The position numbers were made by a program, and so were the translations under genes. Of a DNA stretch of 36,314 nt, positions 5,864-27,911 are shown one piece after another. This stretch comes from Lachnospiraceae bacterium (lineage in GTDB: Bacteria; Bacillota; Clostridia; Lachnospirales; Lachnospiraceae): assembly GCA_017613435.1 (NCBI GenBank), contig JAGADU010000039.1, positions 1 to 36,314 of the forward strand, in the 5' to 3' direction. Each line of letters opens with the position of its first letter. The first letter of the stretch is position 1. A model generated the notes under the pieces. The model was not told the DNA's origin. It searched no databases and saw only the letters and a list, made by a program, of their open reading frames with translations.

Positions 5864-6685
5864 TTAACAGAATTTGCCCGTAACTTTTGCGCATGCAATC
5901 GTAAAAGAGGTTAACTGAACTATCCAGATAACAGCAACGCAAAGAAGCGGAACAATCGTAATATCGGCAAACATTCCGATAATGATAAGCAGTACGGTCA
6001 TTATCGTACATGTCATGTTCACTATATTGTATGCTTTGTAGGCTGCAATTCCGACCTGCTTCTTTTCGGCTTCGTCAAATCCCGAAACCCATTTCTTTTT
6101 AAACGAAAAATCAAAGATGCTTCCGTTTTTCTCGGGATTAAGGAGTTTTTCCATTTCGAGACTCTTTCTTTGAATGATAAAAAACAGCGCCGTGAAAATC
6201 ACCACTCCGATGAGCGAAAGGAAGAATCCGATCTCGTAAATTTCGGCGATAAATCCGGTTTCCGTCTTTACGCTCCTTAAATTGGGAAACAGATTGTAAA
6301 TACTTGCGCCGTGGAGGAAGAAGCAGATTATAATCGATCTTCCGACGGTTCCGAAAAGATCCGCCACCTTATCTTCGATCAGATCCCAATTGTCCTCTCT
6401 CTCTTTTTCCGTTCCCCAAAGCTTTTTGACTTTGATATATTTAACGATTGAAATAACGGCCGTTATCGTACCGAAGACATACATTGCGGCGGCAAAGCAA
6501 AGACTGAACAATTTTCCGTTTTCTTTGAAAAAATCAACCGACATTTCAAACAATTCGTGCTTGGATGCCAAAAAATAACCAAAGAAACTTCCGCCGATTG
6601 CAAAAACAGTCATCGCAATAAAGAATAAGGGCATTCTTTTGTAATCTTCTTTTTTTATTTCGTTAATACGTTTTTCTTCATTCAT
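5864..6685 (-). CDS. DUF3169-like polytopic membrane protein
   Basis: A 273-residue protein with about six membrane helices and a central polar loop. The segment NPEKNGSIFDFSFKKKW followed by SGFDEAEKKQVGIAAYKAY resembles the DUF3169 family, whose members are commonly encoded beside an XRE regulator; the family name is from memory and not checked. The start is placed at the ATG at 6685, 8 bases after AAAGGA. That ATG lies inside the end of the XRE gene, an 8-base overlap (ATGAATGA), so the two are probably translationally coupled. The function of the family is not known; the arrangement suggests a membrane partner or target of the regulator. Confidence 0.75.
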   Translation of the reverse strand: MNEEKRINEIKKEDYKRMPLFFIAMTVFAIGGSFFGYFLASKHELFEMSVDFFKENGKLFSLCFAAAMYVFGTITAVISIVKYIKVKKLWGTEKEREDNWDLIEDKVADLFGTVGRSIIICFFLHGASIYNLFPNLRSVKTETGFIAEIYEIGFFLSLIGVVIFTALFFIIQRKSLEMEKLLNPEKNGSIFDFSFKKKWVSGFDEAEKKQVGIAAYKAYNIVNMTCTIMTVLLIIIGMFADITIVPLLCVAVIWIVQLTSFTIACAKVTGKFC

Positions 6686-6902
6686 TTGCTTCGTCCTTTC
6701 CGTCATCCGTATACTCAAAAATATCTTCAACTTTAACGCCGAAAACCCCGGCCAGTTTCAAAGCCAAGGTTACCGAGGGAGAATAATCTCCCCTTTCTAT
6801 TAAACTGATTGTCTGGCGTGATACATGAACCATCGAGCCGAGTTCCTGCTGATTAACGCCCAGTCTCGCACGATGTTCTTTTAAGCGGTTGTTCAACGAC
6901 AT
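6678..6902 (-). CDS. XRE-family transcriptional regulator (regulator 1)
   Basis: A 74-residue protein that is almost only a Cro/CI-type helix-turn-helix. Helix 2 is NQQELGSMV (about 17-25) and the recognition helix is SRQTISLIERG (about 28-38), followed by the typical YSPSVTLALKLAGVFGV. The ATG follows GGGGGAG at six bases. It overlaps the DUF3169 gene by 8 bases and lies downstream of the CPBP protease gene on the same strand. In alignment with 434 repressor, a glutamine sits at the position of Gln29, which reads the ACAA half-site. This makes it the first candidate to bind the ACAA-N6-TTGT operators at 8153-8224; that link is inference. Confidence 0.9.
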   Translation of the reverse strand: MSLNNRLKEHRARLGVNQQELGSMVHVSRQTISLIERGDYSPSVTLALKLAGVFGVKVEDIFEYTDDGKDEANE

Positions 6903-6931
6903 CTTTTTCTCCCCCGTCGCGAAGAGGTTTC

Positions 6932-6952
6932 GGGAGGCCTGCGCGGCCTCCC
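6932..6952. other. GC-rich hairpin before the XRE gene
   Basis: GGGAGGCC (6932-6939) and GGCCTCCC (6945-6952) form a perfect 8 bp stem with a 5-base loop, 30 bases before the XRE start codon. Neither strand has a T tract after it, so it is not a normal terminator. It could protect or attenuate the transcript between the CPBP and XRE genes. Confidence 0.5.
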
Positions 6953-6958
6953 TTAATA

Positions 6959-7018
6959 CTACAACAAAATCGCAACTATAATTAAAAATGTTAACGTATA
7001 TATCACAAATTTATACAT
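6959..7018 (-). CDS. Possible 19-residue hydrophobic peptide
   Basis: A short ATG-to-TAG frame in the gap between the CPBP and XRE genes encodes MYKFVIYTLTFLIIVAILL, long enough for one membrane helix. GGATGA lies eight to ten bases before the ATG, a weak ribosome site. T-rich DNA produces hydrophobic codons by chance, so this may not be a gene. What favours it is its position within the unit and a comparable frame after the second XRE gene at 9306-9368. Confidence 0.3.
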   Translation of the reverse strand: MYKFVIYTLTFLIIVAILL

Positions 7019-7036
7019 GTTTATTCATCCGTTCGG

Positions 7037-8086
7037 TCAGGCATTTAATATCATTCCCAGATAATTGTATACGAAAAGTCCGAGAGTTGCGAGAATAAAA
7101 ATTATCATTCCGATATTTCCCCACGCAAATTTCATTCCTTTTTCAACCTGAGCCTCGGATTTTTTGATGACGATTTTTTTCTTAACAAGAACGATAATCC
7201 AAATTACGATTCCGATTAACGTCATTACAACACATAATCCCATCCAGCCGTAATACGGAAGGATCGTGGGAATAACCTCTCCCAGAATCTTGGTGTATTC
7301 CGCCTGCAAAGCCGTATCCGCGGGGTTCGAAGCGACCTTTTGAGCCATGTCGCTCATTTCTGCAACTTTATCAAAATCAATAAGTCCTGCAAGTCCTACG
7401 CCTATTATGCTTGCGGACAGATTGAATATCATGTGGTAAACAATCGAATACCATACTTTTCCGGTACGGATATACACATATGCGAAGACAGCTCCCATTC
7501 CCGTAGCGTAGAAAAACTGCGAGAAATTGCCGTGAAAGAGGCCGAACATAAGTGCCGATGATATAATGGCCACCCATTCCCCGTACTTAACGGTTCTGTC
7601 GATTAAGAATTTGCGGAATATCAGTTCTTCAAAAATCGGTGCAAGAATGCCTATCGTAAGTATTCTCCAAAAAGGTGCGGATCCGAGCATAAGATTTGCC
7701 AAAAGATTGCTGTTATTTGCGGATACGCCGAAAGGAAGCGTCAGTACCCTGTTAACAATAAATCCGACAACCGTTCCCGTTCCGCAAAGTCCGCAGCAAA
7801 GCAGGAAGCATACCGCAAATCCCATAGAGCCGAGTTTGTTCTTTTCCGGTGTCTTTTTATCCATCTTTCGAACAATCAAAGTCAGAACGGGAAATCCTAT
7901 TACATATTCCGGAATTATCAGTCCGAACAAAAATGTAAATACGCTGCCTCCCGTAAAGCTCTCGGGAAGAAATTTTCCGATTACCCGAATGATAAGTAAC
8001 TGTACCGCTACGACCGTGATTAAATAAATCGCTGCCGAAAGCGCATATTTCGAATAACTTTTTTTCATCAATACATCGTTTTCCAT
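7037..8086 (-). CDS. CPBP (Abi) family intramembrane metalloprotease
   Basis: A 349-residue membrane protein with about eight helices and the CPBP (PF02517) motifs: EELIFR (about 153-158), FGLFHG with His about 185, and YHMIFN with His about 218 and Asn about 222. These residues form the predicted metal site of the glutamic-type intramembrane protease fold related to Rce1. Bacterial members include bacteriocin self-immunity and peptide-processing proteins. All catalytic residues are present. The start is uncertain. An ATG at 8098 directly abuts the ribosome site AAGGAG, so the in-frame ATG at 8086, 12 bases after it, is preferred. It heads a unit with the tiny ORF, the XRE gene and the DUF3169 gene, and lies beside the three operators at 8153-8224. 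Confidence 0.88.
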   Translation of the reverse strand: MENDVLMKKSYSKYALSAAIYLITVVAVQLLIIRVIGKFLPESFTGGSVFTFLFGLIIPEYVIGFPVLTLIVRKMDKKTPEKNKLGSMGFAVCFLLCCGLCGTGTVVGFIVNRVLTLPFGVSANNSNLLANLMLGSAPFWRILTIGILAPIFEELIFRKFLIDRTVKYGEWVAIISSALMFGLFHGNFSQFFYATGMGAVFAYVYIRTGKVWYSIVYHMIFNLSASIIGVGLAGLIDFDKVAEMSDMAQKVASNPADTALQAEYTKILGEVIPTILPYYGWMGLCVVMTLIGIVIWIIVLVKKKIVIKKSEAQVEKGMKFAWGNIGMIIFILATLGLFVYNYLGMILNA

Positions 8087-8152
8087 TTGATGATTCATCT
8101 CCTTTTCAATTTCTCGTTTTGTTTTATATGAAGCTTCTTTAATAACCGTTTA

Positions 8153-8170
8153 TGACAACCTCTTTTGTCG
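8153..8170. promoter_or_regulatory. Operator 1, TGACAA-N6-TTGTCG
   Basis: Arms TGACAA (8153-8158) and TTGTCG (8165-8170) with spacer CCTCTT. The core ACAA-N6-TTGT is the consensus arrangement of phage 434 repressor operators. It is centred about 45 bases upstream of the start predicted from the TATAAA at 8123-8128, a place from which a bound CI-like protein could touch RNA polymerase. Confidence 0.65.
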
Positions 8171-8173
8171 TTT

Positions 8174-8191
8174 TGACAACTTTACTTGTCA
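8174..8191. promoter_or_regulatory. Operator 2, TGACAA-N6-TTGTCA
   Basis: Perfect arms TGACAA (8174-8179) and TTGTCA (8186-8191) with spacer CTTTAC; the symmetry extends one base further on each side. It starts 21 bases after operator 1, two helical turns, so dimers would lie on the same DNA face. Confidence 0.7.
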
Positions 8192-8206
8192 AACACAGTA
8201 TATCGA

Positions 8207-8224
8207 TGACAAGGAAAGTTGTCA
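8207..8224. promoter_or_regulatory. Operator 3, TGACAA-N6-TTGTCA
   Basis: Perfect arms TGACAA (8207-8212) and TTGTCA (8219-8224) with spacer GGAAAG. It starts 33 bases after operator 2, about three helical turns. Confidence 0.68.
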
Positions 8225-8302
8225 ATATCTTTTTTTGAAAAATTTTTTGAATCATCAAAAAGCCTGTAAACATGGCGTTTTACAGATCTTGTTTTATTTA
8301 TT

Positions 8303-8325
8303 CGATAATTTTTTATCGTTTATCG
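8303..8325. promoter_or_regulatory. TTATCG repeats just upstream of the DUF2975 promoter
   Basis: CGATAA (8303-8308) and TTATCG (8313-8318) are inverted with a 4-base spacer, and a further TTATCG follows at 8320-8325. The group ends 11 bases before the -35 box of the plus-strand promoter. It may be the site of a different regulator, possibly the second XRE protein acting on its own operon. The tract is AT-rich, so chance is possible. Confidence 0.35.
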
Positions 8326-8336
8326 TTAATTTTTTG

Positions 8337-8365
8337 TTGACAAAGATAAATTTCGGTGTTATTCT
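8337..8365 (+). promoter_or_regulatory. Sigma-A promoter for the DUF2975-XRE unit
   Basis: TTGACA (8337-8342), a 17-base spacer and TATTCT (8360-8365). The -35 box is perfect. The leader to the ATG at 8467 would be about 95 bases. Confidence 0.75.
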
Positions 8366-8466
8366 TCCCTTGTAACATACAAAAACCGGTTTTGAAAAAA
8401 TAAATTTTCATCGGTTTGAAGAACGGATTAACAACGACTCAAACCGAATCGTAAAAAGGAGTTATT

Positions 8467-9075
8467 ATGATCGAAGAGAATAAAAAACTTTCAAATGTTA
8501 AGAAAAGCTGCAAGGGAGCAAAGATAGTTTCGACAATCATCTTTATCGTGCTCCTCGCGGGCGCCGTATTATGTACGATATGCTCGATATTACTTTTCGC
8601 GGGAAGAGAAAAAACGGATCTGGAAATCAAAAACGCTCAGGCTTCCGGCTATGAAATGGATGTTGAATTCAAAGCGGGACCTTTTGTCCTCGGTTCGTTC
8701 GAAAACGGAGATTTCGTGGCGCATGAACCCATTGATTCCGATATTCCCGCCGTTGACAATTTCTTTAAAACAAATGCCGAATCACCCTCGGTTTACATGG
8801 GCACCTCTCTTTTTATAACGGCCATTATGATGCTGTTTTCGGCGTTTGCCTTCTTCCTGATTTCATCCGTGTTCTCCATCATCGTAAAAGAAGGCAATCC
8901 CTTCTGCAAAAGGGTGCTTAAAAGAACGCTTGTCGCAATGATAATATTAACCGTACTGGTCGGATTCAGTGCAGGTATTGCTTTCTTCGTACTCATGGGC
9001 TTTTTGACCTGGGTTATCTACACTGTGCTCGATTACGGTTGCGTACTTCAGATTCAGTCTGACGAGACATTATAA
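8467..9075 (+). CDS. DUF2975-like membrane protein
   Basis: A 202-residue protein with membrane helices at about 20-45, 113-140, 153-175 and 176-190, and an outside loop between the first two. The ending VLQIQSDETL and the preceding GNPFCKRVLKR segment match the DUF2975 pattern as I know it; members of this family are typically followed by a small XRE regulator, as here with a 13-base gap. AAAGGAG lies five bases before the ATG. The function of the family is not established; the pairing suggests that it senses or restrains the regulator at the membrane. It faces away from the CPBP unit. Confidence 0.8.
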   Translation: MIEENKKLSNVKKSCKGAKIVSTIIFIVLLAGAVLCTICSILLFAGREKTDLEIKNAQASGYEMDVEFKAGPFVLGSFENGDFVAHEPIDSDIPAVDNFFKTNAESPSVYMGTSLFITAIMMLFSAFAFFLISSVFSIIVKEGNPFCKRVLKRTLVAMIILTVLVGFSAGIAFFVLMGFLTWVIYTVLDYGCVLQIQSDETL

Positions 9076-9088
9076 CGGAGGGGAATAT

Positions 9089-9301
9089 ATGGGAAAAATA
9101 ATTTTAAGACTCGACCGTGTAATGGCCGACAGAAAAATATCTTTGAATGATTTGGCCGAAAAGGTGGGTGTTTCAAACGTCAACCTTTCCAAAATGAAAA
9201 CAGGCAAAATAAGTGCCATTCGCTTTTCGACTCTCGAAGCAATCTGCGAGGCACTCGAATGTCAGCCCGGAGACATTCTCGAATACAGCCGGGAAGAGTG
9301 A
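9089..9301 (+). CDS. XRE-family transcriptional regulator, YozG-like (regulator 2)
   Basis: A 70-residue regulator made of one helix-turn-helix of the type that accompanies DUF2975 proteins. The sequence opens MGKIILRLDRVMADRK, helix 2 is LNDLAEKVG, the recognition helix is SNVNLSKMKTGK (about 29-40), and it closes with ALECQPGDILEY. The ribosome site GGAGGGG lies seven bases before the ATG. The recognition helix differs from that of regulator 1, so the two probably bind different sites. It is co-transcribed with the DUF2975 gene and followed by a strong terminator. Confidence 0.9.
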   Translation: MGKIILRLDRVMADRKISLNDLAEKVGVSNVNLSKMKTGKISAIRFSTLEAICEALECQPGDILEYSREE

Positions 9302-9305
9302 TTAC

Positions 9306-9368
9306 ATGATAATTTTTGTAATTATAAATCTTTTGTCATTTCTGATCTTGTCGGAGATGTTTCCATAG
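9306..9368 (+). CDS. Possible 20-residue hydrophobic peptide
   Basis: An ATG-to-TAG frame starting four bases after the XRE stop encodes a peptide that opens MIIFVIINLLSFLIL, enough for one membrane helix. AAGAGTGAT lies before the ATG and partly matches the anti-Shine-Dalgarno sequence. It ends just before the terminator at 9373. It may be chance in T-rich DNA; the comparable frame at 6959-7018 beside the other XRE gene is the reason to list it. Confidence 0.3.
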   Translation: MIIFVIINLLSFLILSEMFP

Positions 9369-9372
9369 ATTA

Positions 9373-9400
9373 AGGACGGGGTTTTGCCCCGTCCTCTTTT
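9373..9400 (+). terminator. Rho-independent terminator after the DUF2975-XRE unit
   Basis: AGGACGGGG (9373-9381), loop TTTTG and CCCCGTCCT (9387-9395), followed by CTTTTATTC. The stem is a perfect 9 bp. It also lies just beyond the stop of the convergent membrane-protein gene at 9399 and may stop transcripts from both sides. Confidence 0.85.
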
Positions 9401-11237
9401 ATTCTTTCCTGTTTGCGTATGTGCAAAGATATGTGATTACCGGCATTGCGGCTATGTTTATATAAATGTATCGAATCCACGCCACCGGCGCAAGGAAACA
9501 GCTTAGCATGTACATAAAGGGAATCATCATCAAAGTAAGCCCCCTTCTGTCTTTTTTGTATAAAAGGAATGCAAAAGCCGCAAAATATGTCAAAACATAG
9601 AATGAACTTCTCCACGCATTTCCGAGAAGAGGAATCTTAAGACGCCCTTCTTTTTCGCCGTACATATAATCGAATATGCCGCTTCCCATCGGAAGATAAT
9701 TCATGTTTTCAACGGAAGGATAACCGTCATAAACGTTTTTGTTGTAAAGCTTTGTCGTTCCTGTAAGGAAATACGGGTATTCGAGAGGATACCAGTATCC
9801 GAGCGTCATTCCCGTTACCGATTCAAGGTACGATACCGGGTGCTTTAATCCGACTTTGACCACCAGTTTTAGGAAATTTATCTTGTTGGATTTAAGCAAA
9901 GCCTCGTTGGCGTCTTTTTTGATGCCGTCCGCTATTACAAAAGAATATTCGGAAAGCGCGTCTTCGGGAATATATGAAATGATTTCCCCGTATTCTGCGT
10001 CGGTCAGCGTATCTTTTTCACGAACCGCCACCCTTGCGAGACACGAAAGCGGAAGCGACATGCTCTCCCTCTCGGTATCCGTTTCACGAACGTTATATGC
10101 CTTCATCAGTATGTTTTCGCTGACTTTAAAGGCGAGAAATATCGATGCAGTAATAAGAATCACCGGAATTATTCTTTTTATTTTCTTTTGCAAAAGAAGA
10201 ATCAAAACGCCGCCCGCAACCACGGCATAAATCATATTGTTTCTGAAATGGCACGAAAGAGTCGAAGATAAGACGATTCCCGTTGCATAAAGCACTCTTT
10301 TTAAATGCTTTTTGGAATCCGTGTCTAAAAATCTTAACGCAAAAGTAAGCGCAATCAGAATAAATGCCGCGGACAAAACGCCCTTTATCGTTGAAATCGC
10401 AAACCACGCGTTTGCGGGATTAAGCAAAAATACAAAAAGTGCGGCGATTCGAATACTTTTTCTCACTCTTTTTTCGAAGAGATATTCCATAAAGAACGCC
10501 ACCGCAAAAGATAAAATTCCCATTTGAACGAGGGAGTAAATCATCATTCCGCTATTGACGTTTCCTCTCTGCAGGCCCCATTCGTAGGTTTTTCCGAGGA
10601 AAAGCGTGTGCAAAATCGAATGATGCGTGGTCATGCTGTTTGTCAGATAATCATGGAGCTGATAATCCGCATCGTATACGAAATTGATCGGCCAGTGATA
10701 AAGGAAAAGCGGAATAAAGCTTGCAAAAACGAGGCACCAGATTGCCAAAAGGTATAAAAGTCCGCCTTTAAGGAAGGATTTTTCTTCTTTTTCACCGTCT
10801 TTTTTTGTCCGATCGGAAACCATGCTTAAAAATCCGATGATTTCGGAAAGACAGGGGATTGTCAAAAAAGAAAGTCCGACGGCGACAACAACGGATATTG
10901 CGATATTTCGCCCCTCTCCCGAAAACGAATTGTTTCCGTAGAGCATGTATGCGCCCCAAACCGTCAAAAGACTTAAGGGAAGGGCGAATACTGCGGAGAT
11001 AATTACTCTTCTTTTGTCGCTTATTGCTTCTTTTTTGAAAAATCGGCGCAAAAGAATGCAGTCAAGCGCAAAAAAAGCTATGCATGCGGGATTCCATCCG
11101 AATGTTTCAGTCCCTAAATACCCTCCGTTCGAAGAGGTAATACCTGCCAGATAAGCGATTGAGAGCGCATTTATAAAAGCCGAAACAAAAATGAAAAATC
11201 CTTTTTTTTGCAGTTTTACGTCTTTAAATTTCTTCAT
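9399..11237 (-). CDS. Large polytopic membrane protein, possibly DUF6020/GT-C-like
   Basis: A 612-residue protein with about 12-14 membrane helices and one larger outside region (about 390-510). A loop near residues 180-200 reads YHWPINFVYDADYQLHDYL; an acidic tyrosine-rich loop of this kind early in a polytopic protein recalls GT-C glycosyltransferases and the uncharacterised DUF6020 family. I do not recognise it with certainty, and no catalytic residues can be named. The start has no good ribosome site: GGACGAG lies 13 bases before the ATG. It follows the AarF-like gene with a 25-base gap, so it may depend on that transcript. Confidence 0.75.
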   Translation of the reverse strand: MKKFKDVKLQKKGFFIFVSAFINALSIAYLAGITSSNGGYLGTETFGWNPACIAFFALDCILLRRFFKKEAISDKRRVIISAVFALPLSLLTVWGAYMLYGNNSFSGEGRNIAISVVVAVGLSFLTIPCLSEIIGFLSMVSDRTKKDGEKEEKSFLKGGLLYLLAIWCLVFASFIPLFLYHWPINFVYDADYQLHDYLTNSMTTHHSILHTLFLGKTYEWGLQRGNVNSGMMIYSLVQMGILSFAVAFFMEYLFEKRVRKSIRIAALFVFLLNPANAWFAISTIKGVLSAAFILIALTFALRFLDTDSKKHLKRVLYATGIVLSSTLSCHFRNNMIYAVVAGGVLILLLQKKIKRIIPVILITASIFLAFKVSENILMKAYNVRETDTERESMSLPLSCLARVAVREKDTLTDAEYGEIISYIPEDALSEYSFVIADGIKKDANEALLKSNKINFLKLVVKVGLKHPVSYLESVTGMTLGYWYPLEYPYFLTGTTKLYNKNVYDGYPSVENMNYLPMGSGIFDYMYGEKEGRLKIPLLGNAWRSSFYVLTYFAAFAFLLYKKDRRGLTLMMIPFMYMLSCFLAPVAWIRYIYINIAAMPVITYLCTYANRKE

Positions 11238-26767: not shown

Positions 26768-27832
26768 TTATTGGAGTTTCATGTCTCCGTCTTTTATCCA
26801 GCCGAATTTTCTCATGATAAAAGCGATGATCCATGATATAACGCCCGGAAGAATAAAGCAGAGAAGCGCAATCTCAAGAAGCACGAGCCATGCGGGTGTT
26901 CCGTTGGCGGTCATAACCTGAAATGCGTTGATGGGGCCGACGAGTCCTGCGGTACCCATGCCGGATCCGATGGGATTGTTCTCAAATCCGAATACAAGGG
27001 TTGATACGGGGCCTAAAATCGCACTTGTGATAATTGCGGGAAGCCAGATAATCGGCTTCTTAACAATATTGGGCATCTGGAGCATGCTTGTTCCGATTCC
27101 CTGTGCAAAAAGACCGTTCCACTTGTTGTCTTTAAAGCTTGCTACAGCAAAGCCGACCATGTTTGCGCAACATCCGACGGTTGCTGCACCTGCGGCGATT
27201 CCCGAAAGCTGGAGAATTACGCCGATTGCGGCCGAACTGATGGGTAGCGTAAGCGCAATACCCATAAGTACCGATACGATAATTCCCATGAGGAAGGGTG
27301 CCTGATCCGCACCTGTCTGGATTGCTCCTCTTATCACACCCATCATCTTGTCGATGGGAATACCGAGCAAAAGACCTACCGTGCCGCCTGCCGTAATAAG
27401 ACAAAGCGGTGTAATAAGAATATCGAGTCTTGTCTTTCCCGCAACGACTTTTCCGAGATATACCGCGGAAATTGCGGCAAGGAATGCACCGAGGGGTTCT
27501 CCGGGACCCGGAAGGGTCATGCTTCCTTCGACAAGAATCGTTCCCAAAATAATCTGTTTGGCAAATGCACCGATCATACCGGATACCGCAGCCGATACTA
27601 TGGTAAGCGGCTGTGCTTTTAATTTGATGGCTACGCCGCAGCCGATACCGGCACCTGTAAGTATCTGAGCGGTTTTTCCGACCAATGTGACATATCTTCC
27701 GATTTCACCGGGAATTACCGCACCGATCTGTGCTACAATCGTTCCGATAATAAGCGTGGCAAAAAGTCCCGTTGCCATTCCGCTTAAACCGTCAATAAAA
27801 AACTCTTTCAAAAAATCCTTAAACTTCTTCAT
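26768..27832 (-). CDS. PTS_EIIC_2-type permease (putative PTS sugar transporter IIC)
   Basis: A 354-residue membrane protein with about ten helices rich in Gly, Ala and Ile. The order GLSGMATGLFATLIIGTI, GIGCGVAIKLKAQPL, PGPGEPLGAFLAA and GIGTSMLQMPNIVKKP fits the PF13303 group, annotated as a PTS IIC component. No IIA or IIB genes are nearby, and members of this group often stand alone, so sugar phosphorylation cannot be assumed. GGAAAGG precedes the ATG. It has its own promoter candidate (27883-27911) and terminator (26716-26747), so it is probably a single-gene unit. Confidence 0.82.
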   Translation of the reverse strand: MKKFKDFLKEFFIDGLSGMATGLFATLIIGTIVAQIGAVIPGEIGRYVTLVGKTAQILTGAGIGCGVAIKLKAQPLTIVSAAVSGMIGAFAKQIILGTILVEGSMTLPGPGEPLGAFLAAISAVYLGKVVAGKTRLDILITPLCLITAGGTVGLLLGIPIDKMMGVIRGAIQTGADQAPFLMGIIVSVLMGIALTLPISSAAIGVILQLSGIAAGAATVGCCANMVGFAVASFKDNKWNGLFAQGIGTSMLQMPNIVKKPIIWLPAIITSAILGPVSTLVFGFENNPIGSGMGTAGLVGPINAFQVMTANGTPAWLVLLEIALLCFILPGVISWIIAFIMRKFGWIKDGDMKLQ

Positions 27833-27882: not shown

Positions 27883-27911
27883 ACATTATCATTGATAAAT
27901 TCTTTTGTCAA
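27883..27911 (-). promoter_or_regulatory. Promoter candidate for the PTS permease gene
   Basis: On the minus strand TTGACA-like TTGACA (27906-27911) is followed by TAATGT at 17 bases (27883-27888) or GATAAT at 15 bases (27885-27890). The -35 box is perfect; the -10 choice is unclear. Confidence 0.55.

What the first reader, a model, noticed from the sequence alone, without database searches (positions are those of the whole stretch)
8153..8224. Three tandem 434-type operators (ACAA-N6-TTGT) in one control region
Three palindromes of the form TGACAA-N6-TTGTC(A/G) start at 8153, 8174 and 8207, 21 and 33 bases apart, near whole helical turns. The core equals the 434 repressor/Cro operator consensus. 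Operator 1 sits about 45 bases upstream of a start predicted from TATAAA at 8123-8128, which lacks a -35 box, so the protein could be an activator as well as a repressor. A three-operator cooperative switch outside a prophage would be unusual.
Basis: partly seen in the sequence, partly recalled or inferred. Interest (0 to 1): 0.75.

Follow-up and report, generated by a model that had tools for sequence, protein, structure and literature searches.

The report
Self-repressing membrane-stress operon with three operators
Three matching binding sites for a small repressor are built into the promoter of a bacterial operon that encodes a membrane protease, the repressor itself and its likely membrane sensor, and the same sites recur beside the same repressor gene in many related bacteria.

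Summary
The three palindromes are real. The two perfect ones (8174, 8207) are the only exact TGACAA-N6-TTGTCA sites in the 2.1 Mb genome assembly. Operator 3 overlaps the -35, operator 2 covers the expected start, operator 1 follows 21 bp on. The operon is CPBP protease, XRE repressor (6678-6902), DUF3169 membrane protein.

The binder is very probably the operon's own XRE protein. Of 42 fetched relatives with the same type of recognition helix, 39 have at least one operator in the fetched DNA and 37 have two or more; of 36 with other helices, none has two. Outside the genus the operators sit directly before the XRE gene.

XRE plus DUF3169 is the arrangement of S. aureus AyrR/AyrA, which controls a secretion-stress operon. 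Here the cargo is a CPBP protease, not the AyrBC transporter; relatives carry CPBP, ABC or M50 genes. So it is best read as an autorepressed, probably membrane-stress-induced operon, not a phage switch and not an activated promoter. Binding and inducer are untested. New variant of a known kind.

The parts
8207..8224 (.). Operator 3 (promoter-proximal, exact palindrome TGACAAGGAAAGTTGTCA); overlaps the -35 box and spacer of the minus-strand promoter
   Evidence: position relative to the promoter repeated in 42 of 44 distinct regions
8174..8191 (.). Operator 2 (exact palindrome TGACAACTTTACTTGTCA); lies just downstream of the -10 box, over the expected transcription start
   Evidence: the 33-bp pair occurs in 22 of 295 genomes, reversed-pattern control in 0 of 295
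8153..8170 (.). Operator 1 (TGACAACCTCTTTTGTCG, one departure), 21 bp further into the transcribed leader
   Evidence: a 21-bp-spaced site recurs (20 spacings of 21)
8197..8225 (-). Promoter TTGACA-17-TATACT (11 of 12 consensus matches) of the CPBP-XRE-DUF3169 operon; start expected near 8190 (inferred)
   Evidence: identical hexamers in 10 of 10 aligned upstream regions
7037..8098 (-). CPBP (Rce1-like) intramembrane protease, 353 aa, with EELIFR, FGLFH and HMIFN motifs (motif meaning recalled)
   Evidence: Pfam PF02517 E 2.4e-23; motifs
6678..6902 (-). XRE/Cro-type regulator (74 aa), the proposed repressor; recognition helix SRQTISLIERG
   Evidence: Pfam HTH_3; nearest solved structures 9k3w and CylR2 1utx; operator association
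5864..6685 (-). DUF3169 polytopic membrane protein (AyrA family), the proposed sensor; reading frame overlaps the end of the XRE gene; DEAE motif at residue 204, between the 4th and 5th hydrophobic stretches
   Evidence: Pfam PF11368 E 3.7e-38; hydropathy and motif
8337..9301 (+). Context only: divergent promoter (TTGACA-17-TATTCT, 8337-8365), a 202-aa protein without a Pfam family (8467-9075) and a second, HTH_26-type regulator (9089-9301); not the binder in the preferred reading
   Evidence: the second regulator is found in 10 of 22 operator loci, 0 of 6 outside the genus

Best explanation
The sites are operators of the XRE protein encoded at 6678-6902, which represses its own operon. Dimers of this CylR2/434-like protein sit on operator 3 (over the -35 box), operator 2 (over the start site) and operator 1, and shut off the TTGACA-17-TATACT promoter; the 33- and 21-bp spacings put neighbouring dimers near the same face of the helix, which would favour cooperative binding (inferred). 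The DUF3169 membrane protein made from the same operon is the likely sensor: by analogy with S. aureus AyrA it would inactivate the repressor when the membrane is burdened, for instance with uncleared signal peptides or preproteins, and so raise the CPBP intramembrane protease together with repressor and sensor. Shown by sequence: operators, promoter overlap, operon order, association with this repressor subfamily. Inferred: binding, repression, cooperativity, the stress signal and what the protease clears.
For: Promoter with -35 inside operator 3, hexamers identical in 10 of 10 upstream regions. Geometry: in 42 of 44 distinct operator regions the best promoter starts one base before an operator. 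Less circular: a -10-like hexamer lies 16-18 bp on from 35 of 38 first members of 32-36-bp pairs, 9 of 38 second members and 1 of 20 sites placed 21 bp downstream. Association: of 80 CPBP relatives, the 6 with clustered operators are exactly the 6 with a close XRE relative (67-91% identity) next to the CPBP gene. Across 295 genomes, operator pair 22, XRE 35, both 20 (Fisher p 1e-19, relatedness ignored). Helix: 42 loci with SRQTIS[LQS]IERG[DE]Y[SN]PS, 39 with a site and 37 with two or more; 36 loci with other helices, 2 with one site and 0 with two. All 4 other phylum-wide loci over the DUF3169 cut-off have an XRE relative with sites. Named case: two Paraclostridium bifermentans plasmids, XRE gene then DUF3169 gene, sites at -85, -50 and -29. 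Outside the genus, operators lie directly before the XRE gene in 6 of 6. Dedicated sites: 79 exact sites in the 35 XRE-bearing genomes against 7 for the reversed pattern. DUF3169/AyrA: published as relaying secretion stress to AyrR (PMC5727409, abstract and passages).
Against: No binding or expression data. Exceptions: G113 (L160) has a 61% XRE relative with neither operator nor DUF3169 in the fetched DNA, G038 (L158) has one operator only, L124 has operators but no DUF3169-like protein on the operon strand in the fetched DNA. G110 has a degenerate pair (2 mismatches) with only a 42% XRE relative. G008 has the pair but no XRE hit, its pair lying near a contig end. L114 and L115 have the XRE gene without sites; their genomes hold the pair on another contig. 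Two DUF3169-linked relatives with SRQTIALIERG lack the motif (L174, L183), which fits a changed specificity but is not proof. DUF3169 here shows five hydrophobic stretches by a crude scan, not the six stated for the family. Spacings other than 33 and 21 occur (25-27, 40-43), so strict helical phasing is not required.
Confidence: 0.8

Rival explanations
1. The divergent HTH_26 regulator (9089-9301) binds the three sites and controls both directions.
For: It is encoded next door, divergent from the CPBP gene, and is strongly conserved where present (85-96% identity).
Against: Found in 10 of 22 operator loci and in 0 of 6 outside the genus within the 3 kb fetched. Its own promoter (8337) lies over 100 bp from operator 3. 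Its only solved relative in the search is not a 434/CylR2-type protein.
Confidence: 0.04
2. The XRE protein is an activator or dual regulator that uses a downstream promoter with TATAAA at 8123-8128.
For: TATAAA is present, and operator 1 lies upstream of it.
Against: The string TATAAA is found in only 2 of 10 aligned upstream regions, while the promoter inside the operators is identical in 10 of 10 and recurs in 42 of 44 distinct regions.
Confidence: 0.04
3. Same repressor, different signal: a CylR1/CylR2-like system in which an extracellular or membrane peptide, not preprotein or membrane stress, relieves repression.
For: CylR2 is among the nearest solved relatives of the XRE protein (E 4e-11) and works with a membrane partner (PMC3709268, passages).
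Against: The partner gene here is DUF3169, the AyrA family, not the three-helix CylR1; none of the 8 neighbouring proteins scanned is a lantibiotic or bacteriocin gene by Pfam.
Confidence: 0.15
4. A relic of a prophage immunity region (434-like three-operator switch).
For: The core matches the 434 form (recalled), and 434 repressor is a weak relative of the XRE protein (E 4e-5). Eleven phage records hold an XRE relative.
Against: No Pfam phage family among the 8 neighbours scanned. The two closest phage records are unverified faecal scaffolds that also carry DUF3169, so they may be bacterial DNA. Operators go with a chromosomal or plasmid XRE-DUF3169 pair over many genera.
Confidence: 0.02

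Closest known systems
AyrR/AyrA of the Staphylococcus aureus ayrRABC (cro/cI) secretion-stress operon
   Same: Small Cro-like repressor gene followed at once by a DUF3169 polytopic membrane protein; binding upstream of the repressor gene is reported for AyrR (PMC5727409, passages). The D-E(a/g)E motif in the loop after the fourth membrane stretch is present (DEAE). Some operator-bearing relatives also carry an ABC transporter gene (L128, L136, L144).
   Different: Here a CPBP intramembrane protease comes first and no ayrBC-like gene was seen.
CylR2/CylR1, Enterococcus faecalis cytolysin regulators
   Same: About 66-residue stand-alone XRE repressor (E 4e-11) paired with a membrane protein thought to pass on the signal (PMC3709268, passages).
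   Different: CylR1 is described with three predicted helices, unrelated by name to DUF3169; the target there is a toxin operon. The CylR2 operator paper is not held.
Phage 434 repressor/Cro operators
   Same: 14-bp ACAA-N6-TTGT core in a group of three; weak sequence similarity of the DNA-binding domain (E 4e-5).
   Different: Here the site is extended to TGACAA-N6-TTGTCA; there is one promoter, not a divergent lysis/lysogeny pair; no cleavable C-terminal domain (74 aa).

Membership tests
AyrR/AyrA (XRE + DUF3169) regulatory pair | Cro-like HTH repressor of about 67-74 residues | tested here: met
   74 aa, Pfam HTH_3 E 3.9e-14
AyrR/AyrA (XRE + DUF3169) regulatory pair | DUF3169 gene immediately downstream of the repressor gene | tested here: met
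   PF11368 E 3.7e-38; reading frames overlap at 6678-6685
AyrR/AyrA (XRE + DUF3169) regulatory pair | Six membrane segments and D-E(a/g)E between segments 4 and 5 | tested here: inconclusive
   DEAE at residue 204 between the 4th and 5th hydrophobic stretches; only five stretches by hydropathy. Motif found in 18 of 23 DUF3169-sized ORFs
AyrR/AyrA (XRE + DUF3169) regulatory pair | Repressor binds upstream of its own operon | not testable with these tools
   Operators and association fit; no binding data
AyrR/AyrA (XRE + DUF3169) regulatory pair | Induction by accumulated preproteins, relayed by the DUF3169 protein | not testable with these tools
   Published for S. aureus only (PMC5727409, abstract and passages)
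Full ayrRABC operon | AyrBC ABC transporter in the operon | tested here: not met
   Window operon has CPBP, not ABC genes; gene after DUF3169 on the strand is a Dabb protein. So not filed as ayrRABC
Phage 434-type immunity region | Phage genes and divergent repressor/cro pair around the operators | tested here: not met
   None of 8 neighbours has a phage family in Pfam
CylR1/CylR2 system | CylR1 membrane partner and lantibiotic operon | tested here: not met
   Partner is DUF3169; no lantibiotic gene among the 8 neighbours scanned

The most novel reading that the evidence does not exclude
XRE-DUF3169 pairs form a widespread Bacillota membrane-clearance switch with one shared operator code (TGACAA-N6-TTGTCA built into the -35 box) and exchangeable cargo: an ABC exporter, a CPBP intramembrane protease or an M50 site-2-type protease. 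In the window's lineage the CPBP protease would then be a protease-based counterpart of the AyrBC bypass, removing stranded signal peptides or preproteins by cutting inside the membrane.
Probability: 0.4. Interest if true: 0.7.

Novelty: new variant of a known kind. Interest (0 to 1): 0.5.

Why it matters
It supplies a specific operator sequence and promoter layout for a repressor-membrane-sensor pair that is known from one secretion-stress operon, and shows the same code over several families and more than one class of Bacillota. That makes target genes findable by sequence alone, and points to intramembrane proteases (CPBP, M50) as cargo of the same switch. If true, how Gram-positive bacteria notice and clear jammed membranes becomes testable in organisms where nothing is known about it.

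Tried and rejected
Rejected: TATAAA promoter and activator reading; divergent HTH_26 regulator as binder; prophage switch; a wider regulon in the own genome (the 7 other one-mismatch places fit chance). Rfam found nothing in the window. The one-mismatch site at 27893 was not followed up.

The CylR2 structure paper is not held. A search for DUF3169 on plasmids found only the two Paraclostridium plasmids, so no staphylococcal operator could be compared. Text searches for the motif or the AyrR operator gave listings only, none judged relevant from title and abstract start; DUF3169 is named in 5 held papers, of which one was opened for passages.

Counts to keep in mind: the first operator scan covered 33 of the 80 CPBP relatives; one search covered all 80 with the same six positive. 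In one search, 9 of 14 CPBP loci with a distant XRE relative were entered; the other five were scanned (0 clustered sites, one lone one-mismatch site). Of 43 matches, the loci of 13 were not fetched. Six of 50 regions were dropped as duplicates. Five of the six genome-contig loci with operators are the same genomes as genome-search loci, so the two sets are not independent. L158 and L165 look like near relatives.

Full report
Observation. The three palindromes stand where stated: 8153-8170 (one departure), 8174-8191 and 8207-8224 (both exact), 21 and 33 bp apart. Operators 2 and 3 are inverted copies of one another. In the own genome (2,106,620 bases, 84% complete) the exact form occurs only at these two places; the seven further one-mismatch places outside the cluster match the 6.2 expected by chance.

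Promoter. The best sigma-70-type promoter of 6600-9450 is on the minus strand at 8225-8197, TTGACA-17-TATACT, 11 of 12 (the scan as a whole found 10 promoter-like sites against 6.7 in shuffles, so it is the conservation that carries weight). Its -35 hexamer starts one base before operator 3 and its -10 lies between operators 3 and 2. Over 44 distinct operator regions from this and other genera, 42 have the best promoter starting exactly one base before an operator; the two exceptions (L158, L165) have one operator only. That search is favoured by the operator containing TGACA, so a less circular count was made: a -10-like hexamer at the right distance follows 35 of 38 first members of 32-36-bp pairs, 9 of 38 second members and 1 of 20 sites 21 bp downstream.

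Operon. Downstream on the minus strand are a CPBP (Rce1-like) protease, an XRE regulator and a DUF3169 membrane protein; the last two reading frames overlap. The divergent side has a 202-aa protein without a Pfam family and an HTH_26 regulator.

Who binds. (a) Of 80 CPBP relatives from genome contigs, six have clustered operators, and these are exactly the six with a close XRE relative beside the CPBP gene. (b) In 295 related genomes the operator pair was found in 22 (reversed control 0) and the XRE protein at E 1e-18 in 35; 20 have both. (c) Of those 35, 33 have two or more sites (28 in the fetched loci, G007 and G014 on another contig, G027, G173 and G224), one has a single site (G038) and one none (G113, which also lacks a DUF3169 hit in the fetched stretch). 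(d) In six genomes outside the genus the operators stand directly before the XRE gene. (e) Phylum-wide, 30 of 43 matches were fetched; apart from the window the four with the SRQTISLIERG-type helix have operators at the gene, two with SRQTIALIERG have none, one with SRQSISLLERG has a lone site 394 bp upstream, and 22 with other helices have none. Over all loci classed by helix: 39 of 42 with a site and 37 with two or more, against 2 of 36 and 0 of 36. One of the SRQTIALIERG loci (L174) instead shows two different palindromes 21 bp apart before its XRE gene. (f) The divergent HTH_26 regulator is present in 10 of 22 operator loci and in none of the six outside the genus.

Dedicated sites. In the 35 XRE-bearing genomes there are 79 exact sites (own count of the forward column) against 7 for the reversed pattern; at least five listed sites lie away from the XRE locus, and one in G224 was not placed. 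So the operator serves one promoter per genome.

What the pair resembles. The XRE protein's nearest solved relatives are 9k3w (PbsX family, E 3e-13) and CylR2 (1utx, E 4e-11); 434 repressor is more distant (E 4e-5). XRE followed by DUF3169 is the ayrR-ayrA arrangement. [quoted passage not shown] Passages of PMC5013292 report repressor mutations and upstream mutations ascribed to a putative operator, without a palindrome being named in them.

Cargo. Among 26 operator-side loci read for genes, with Pfam on 10 chosen proteins: CPBP genes before, between or after the pair (for example L091, L146, L138 confirmed by Pfam), ABC-transporter ATPases after it (L128, L136, L144), and an M50-type protein after it in L135 (above cut-off) and weakly in L132 (below cut-off). 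Many others carry XRE-DUF3169 with no such neighbour in the stretch fetched.

Mechanism. The best-supported reading is repression of the operon by its own XRE product at three operators, one of which contains the -35 box. By analogy with AyrA, the DUF3169 protein would relieve repression under membrane or secretion stress. The repression step rests on sequence and conservation; the stress signal and the protease's substrate are inference.

Novelty. DUF3169 is named in 5 held papers and AyrR in 7, four of them unrelated by title; the searches for the motif with operator terms and for the S. aureus locus gave no listed paper that, from title and abstract start, describes this operator. Papers outside the held library were not searched. 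I rate it a new variant of a known kind.

Noticed in passing
window 6959-7018 (-): A 19-residue hydrophobic reading frame (MYKFVIYTLTFLIIVAILL) between the CPBP and XRE genes, followed by a strong GC-rich hairpin (GGGAGGCC-GCGCA-GGCCUCCC). The whole gap folds only slightly better than shuffles (z -1.6).
   Followed up: partly
window 8467-9301 (+): A second membrane-protein plus small HTH (HTH_26) pair stands back to back with the first; the HTH is 85-96% identical in the 10 operator loci that have it, so two such modules may be coupled in this genus.
   Followed up: partly
window 27893-27910: A one-mismatch operator-like site (TGATAAATTCTTTTGTCA) in the gap before the 26768-27832 minus-strand frame; the number of such sites in the genome fits chance.
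   Followed up: no
L174 upstream of its XRE gene: A DUF3169-linked relative with helix SRQTIALIERG has two TTGTAT/ATACAA-type palindromes 21 bp apart in place of the TGACAA operator, as if one helix change went with a changed operator.
   Followed up: partly
L164, L165 (phage records MT837652.1, MT835936.1): Two unverified 'Bacteriophage sp.' faecal scaffolds carry the XRE-DUF3169 pair with operators; they may be bacterial DNA filed as phage.
   Followed up: no
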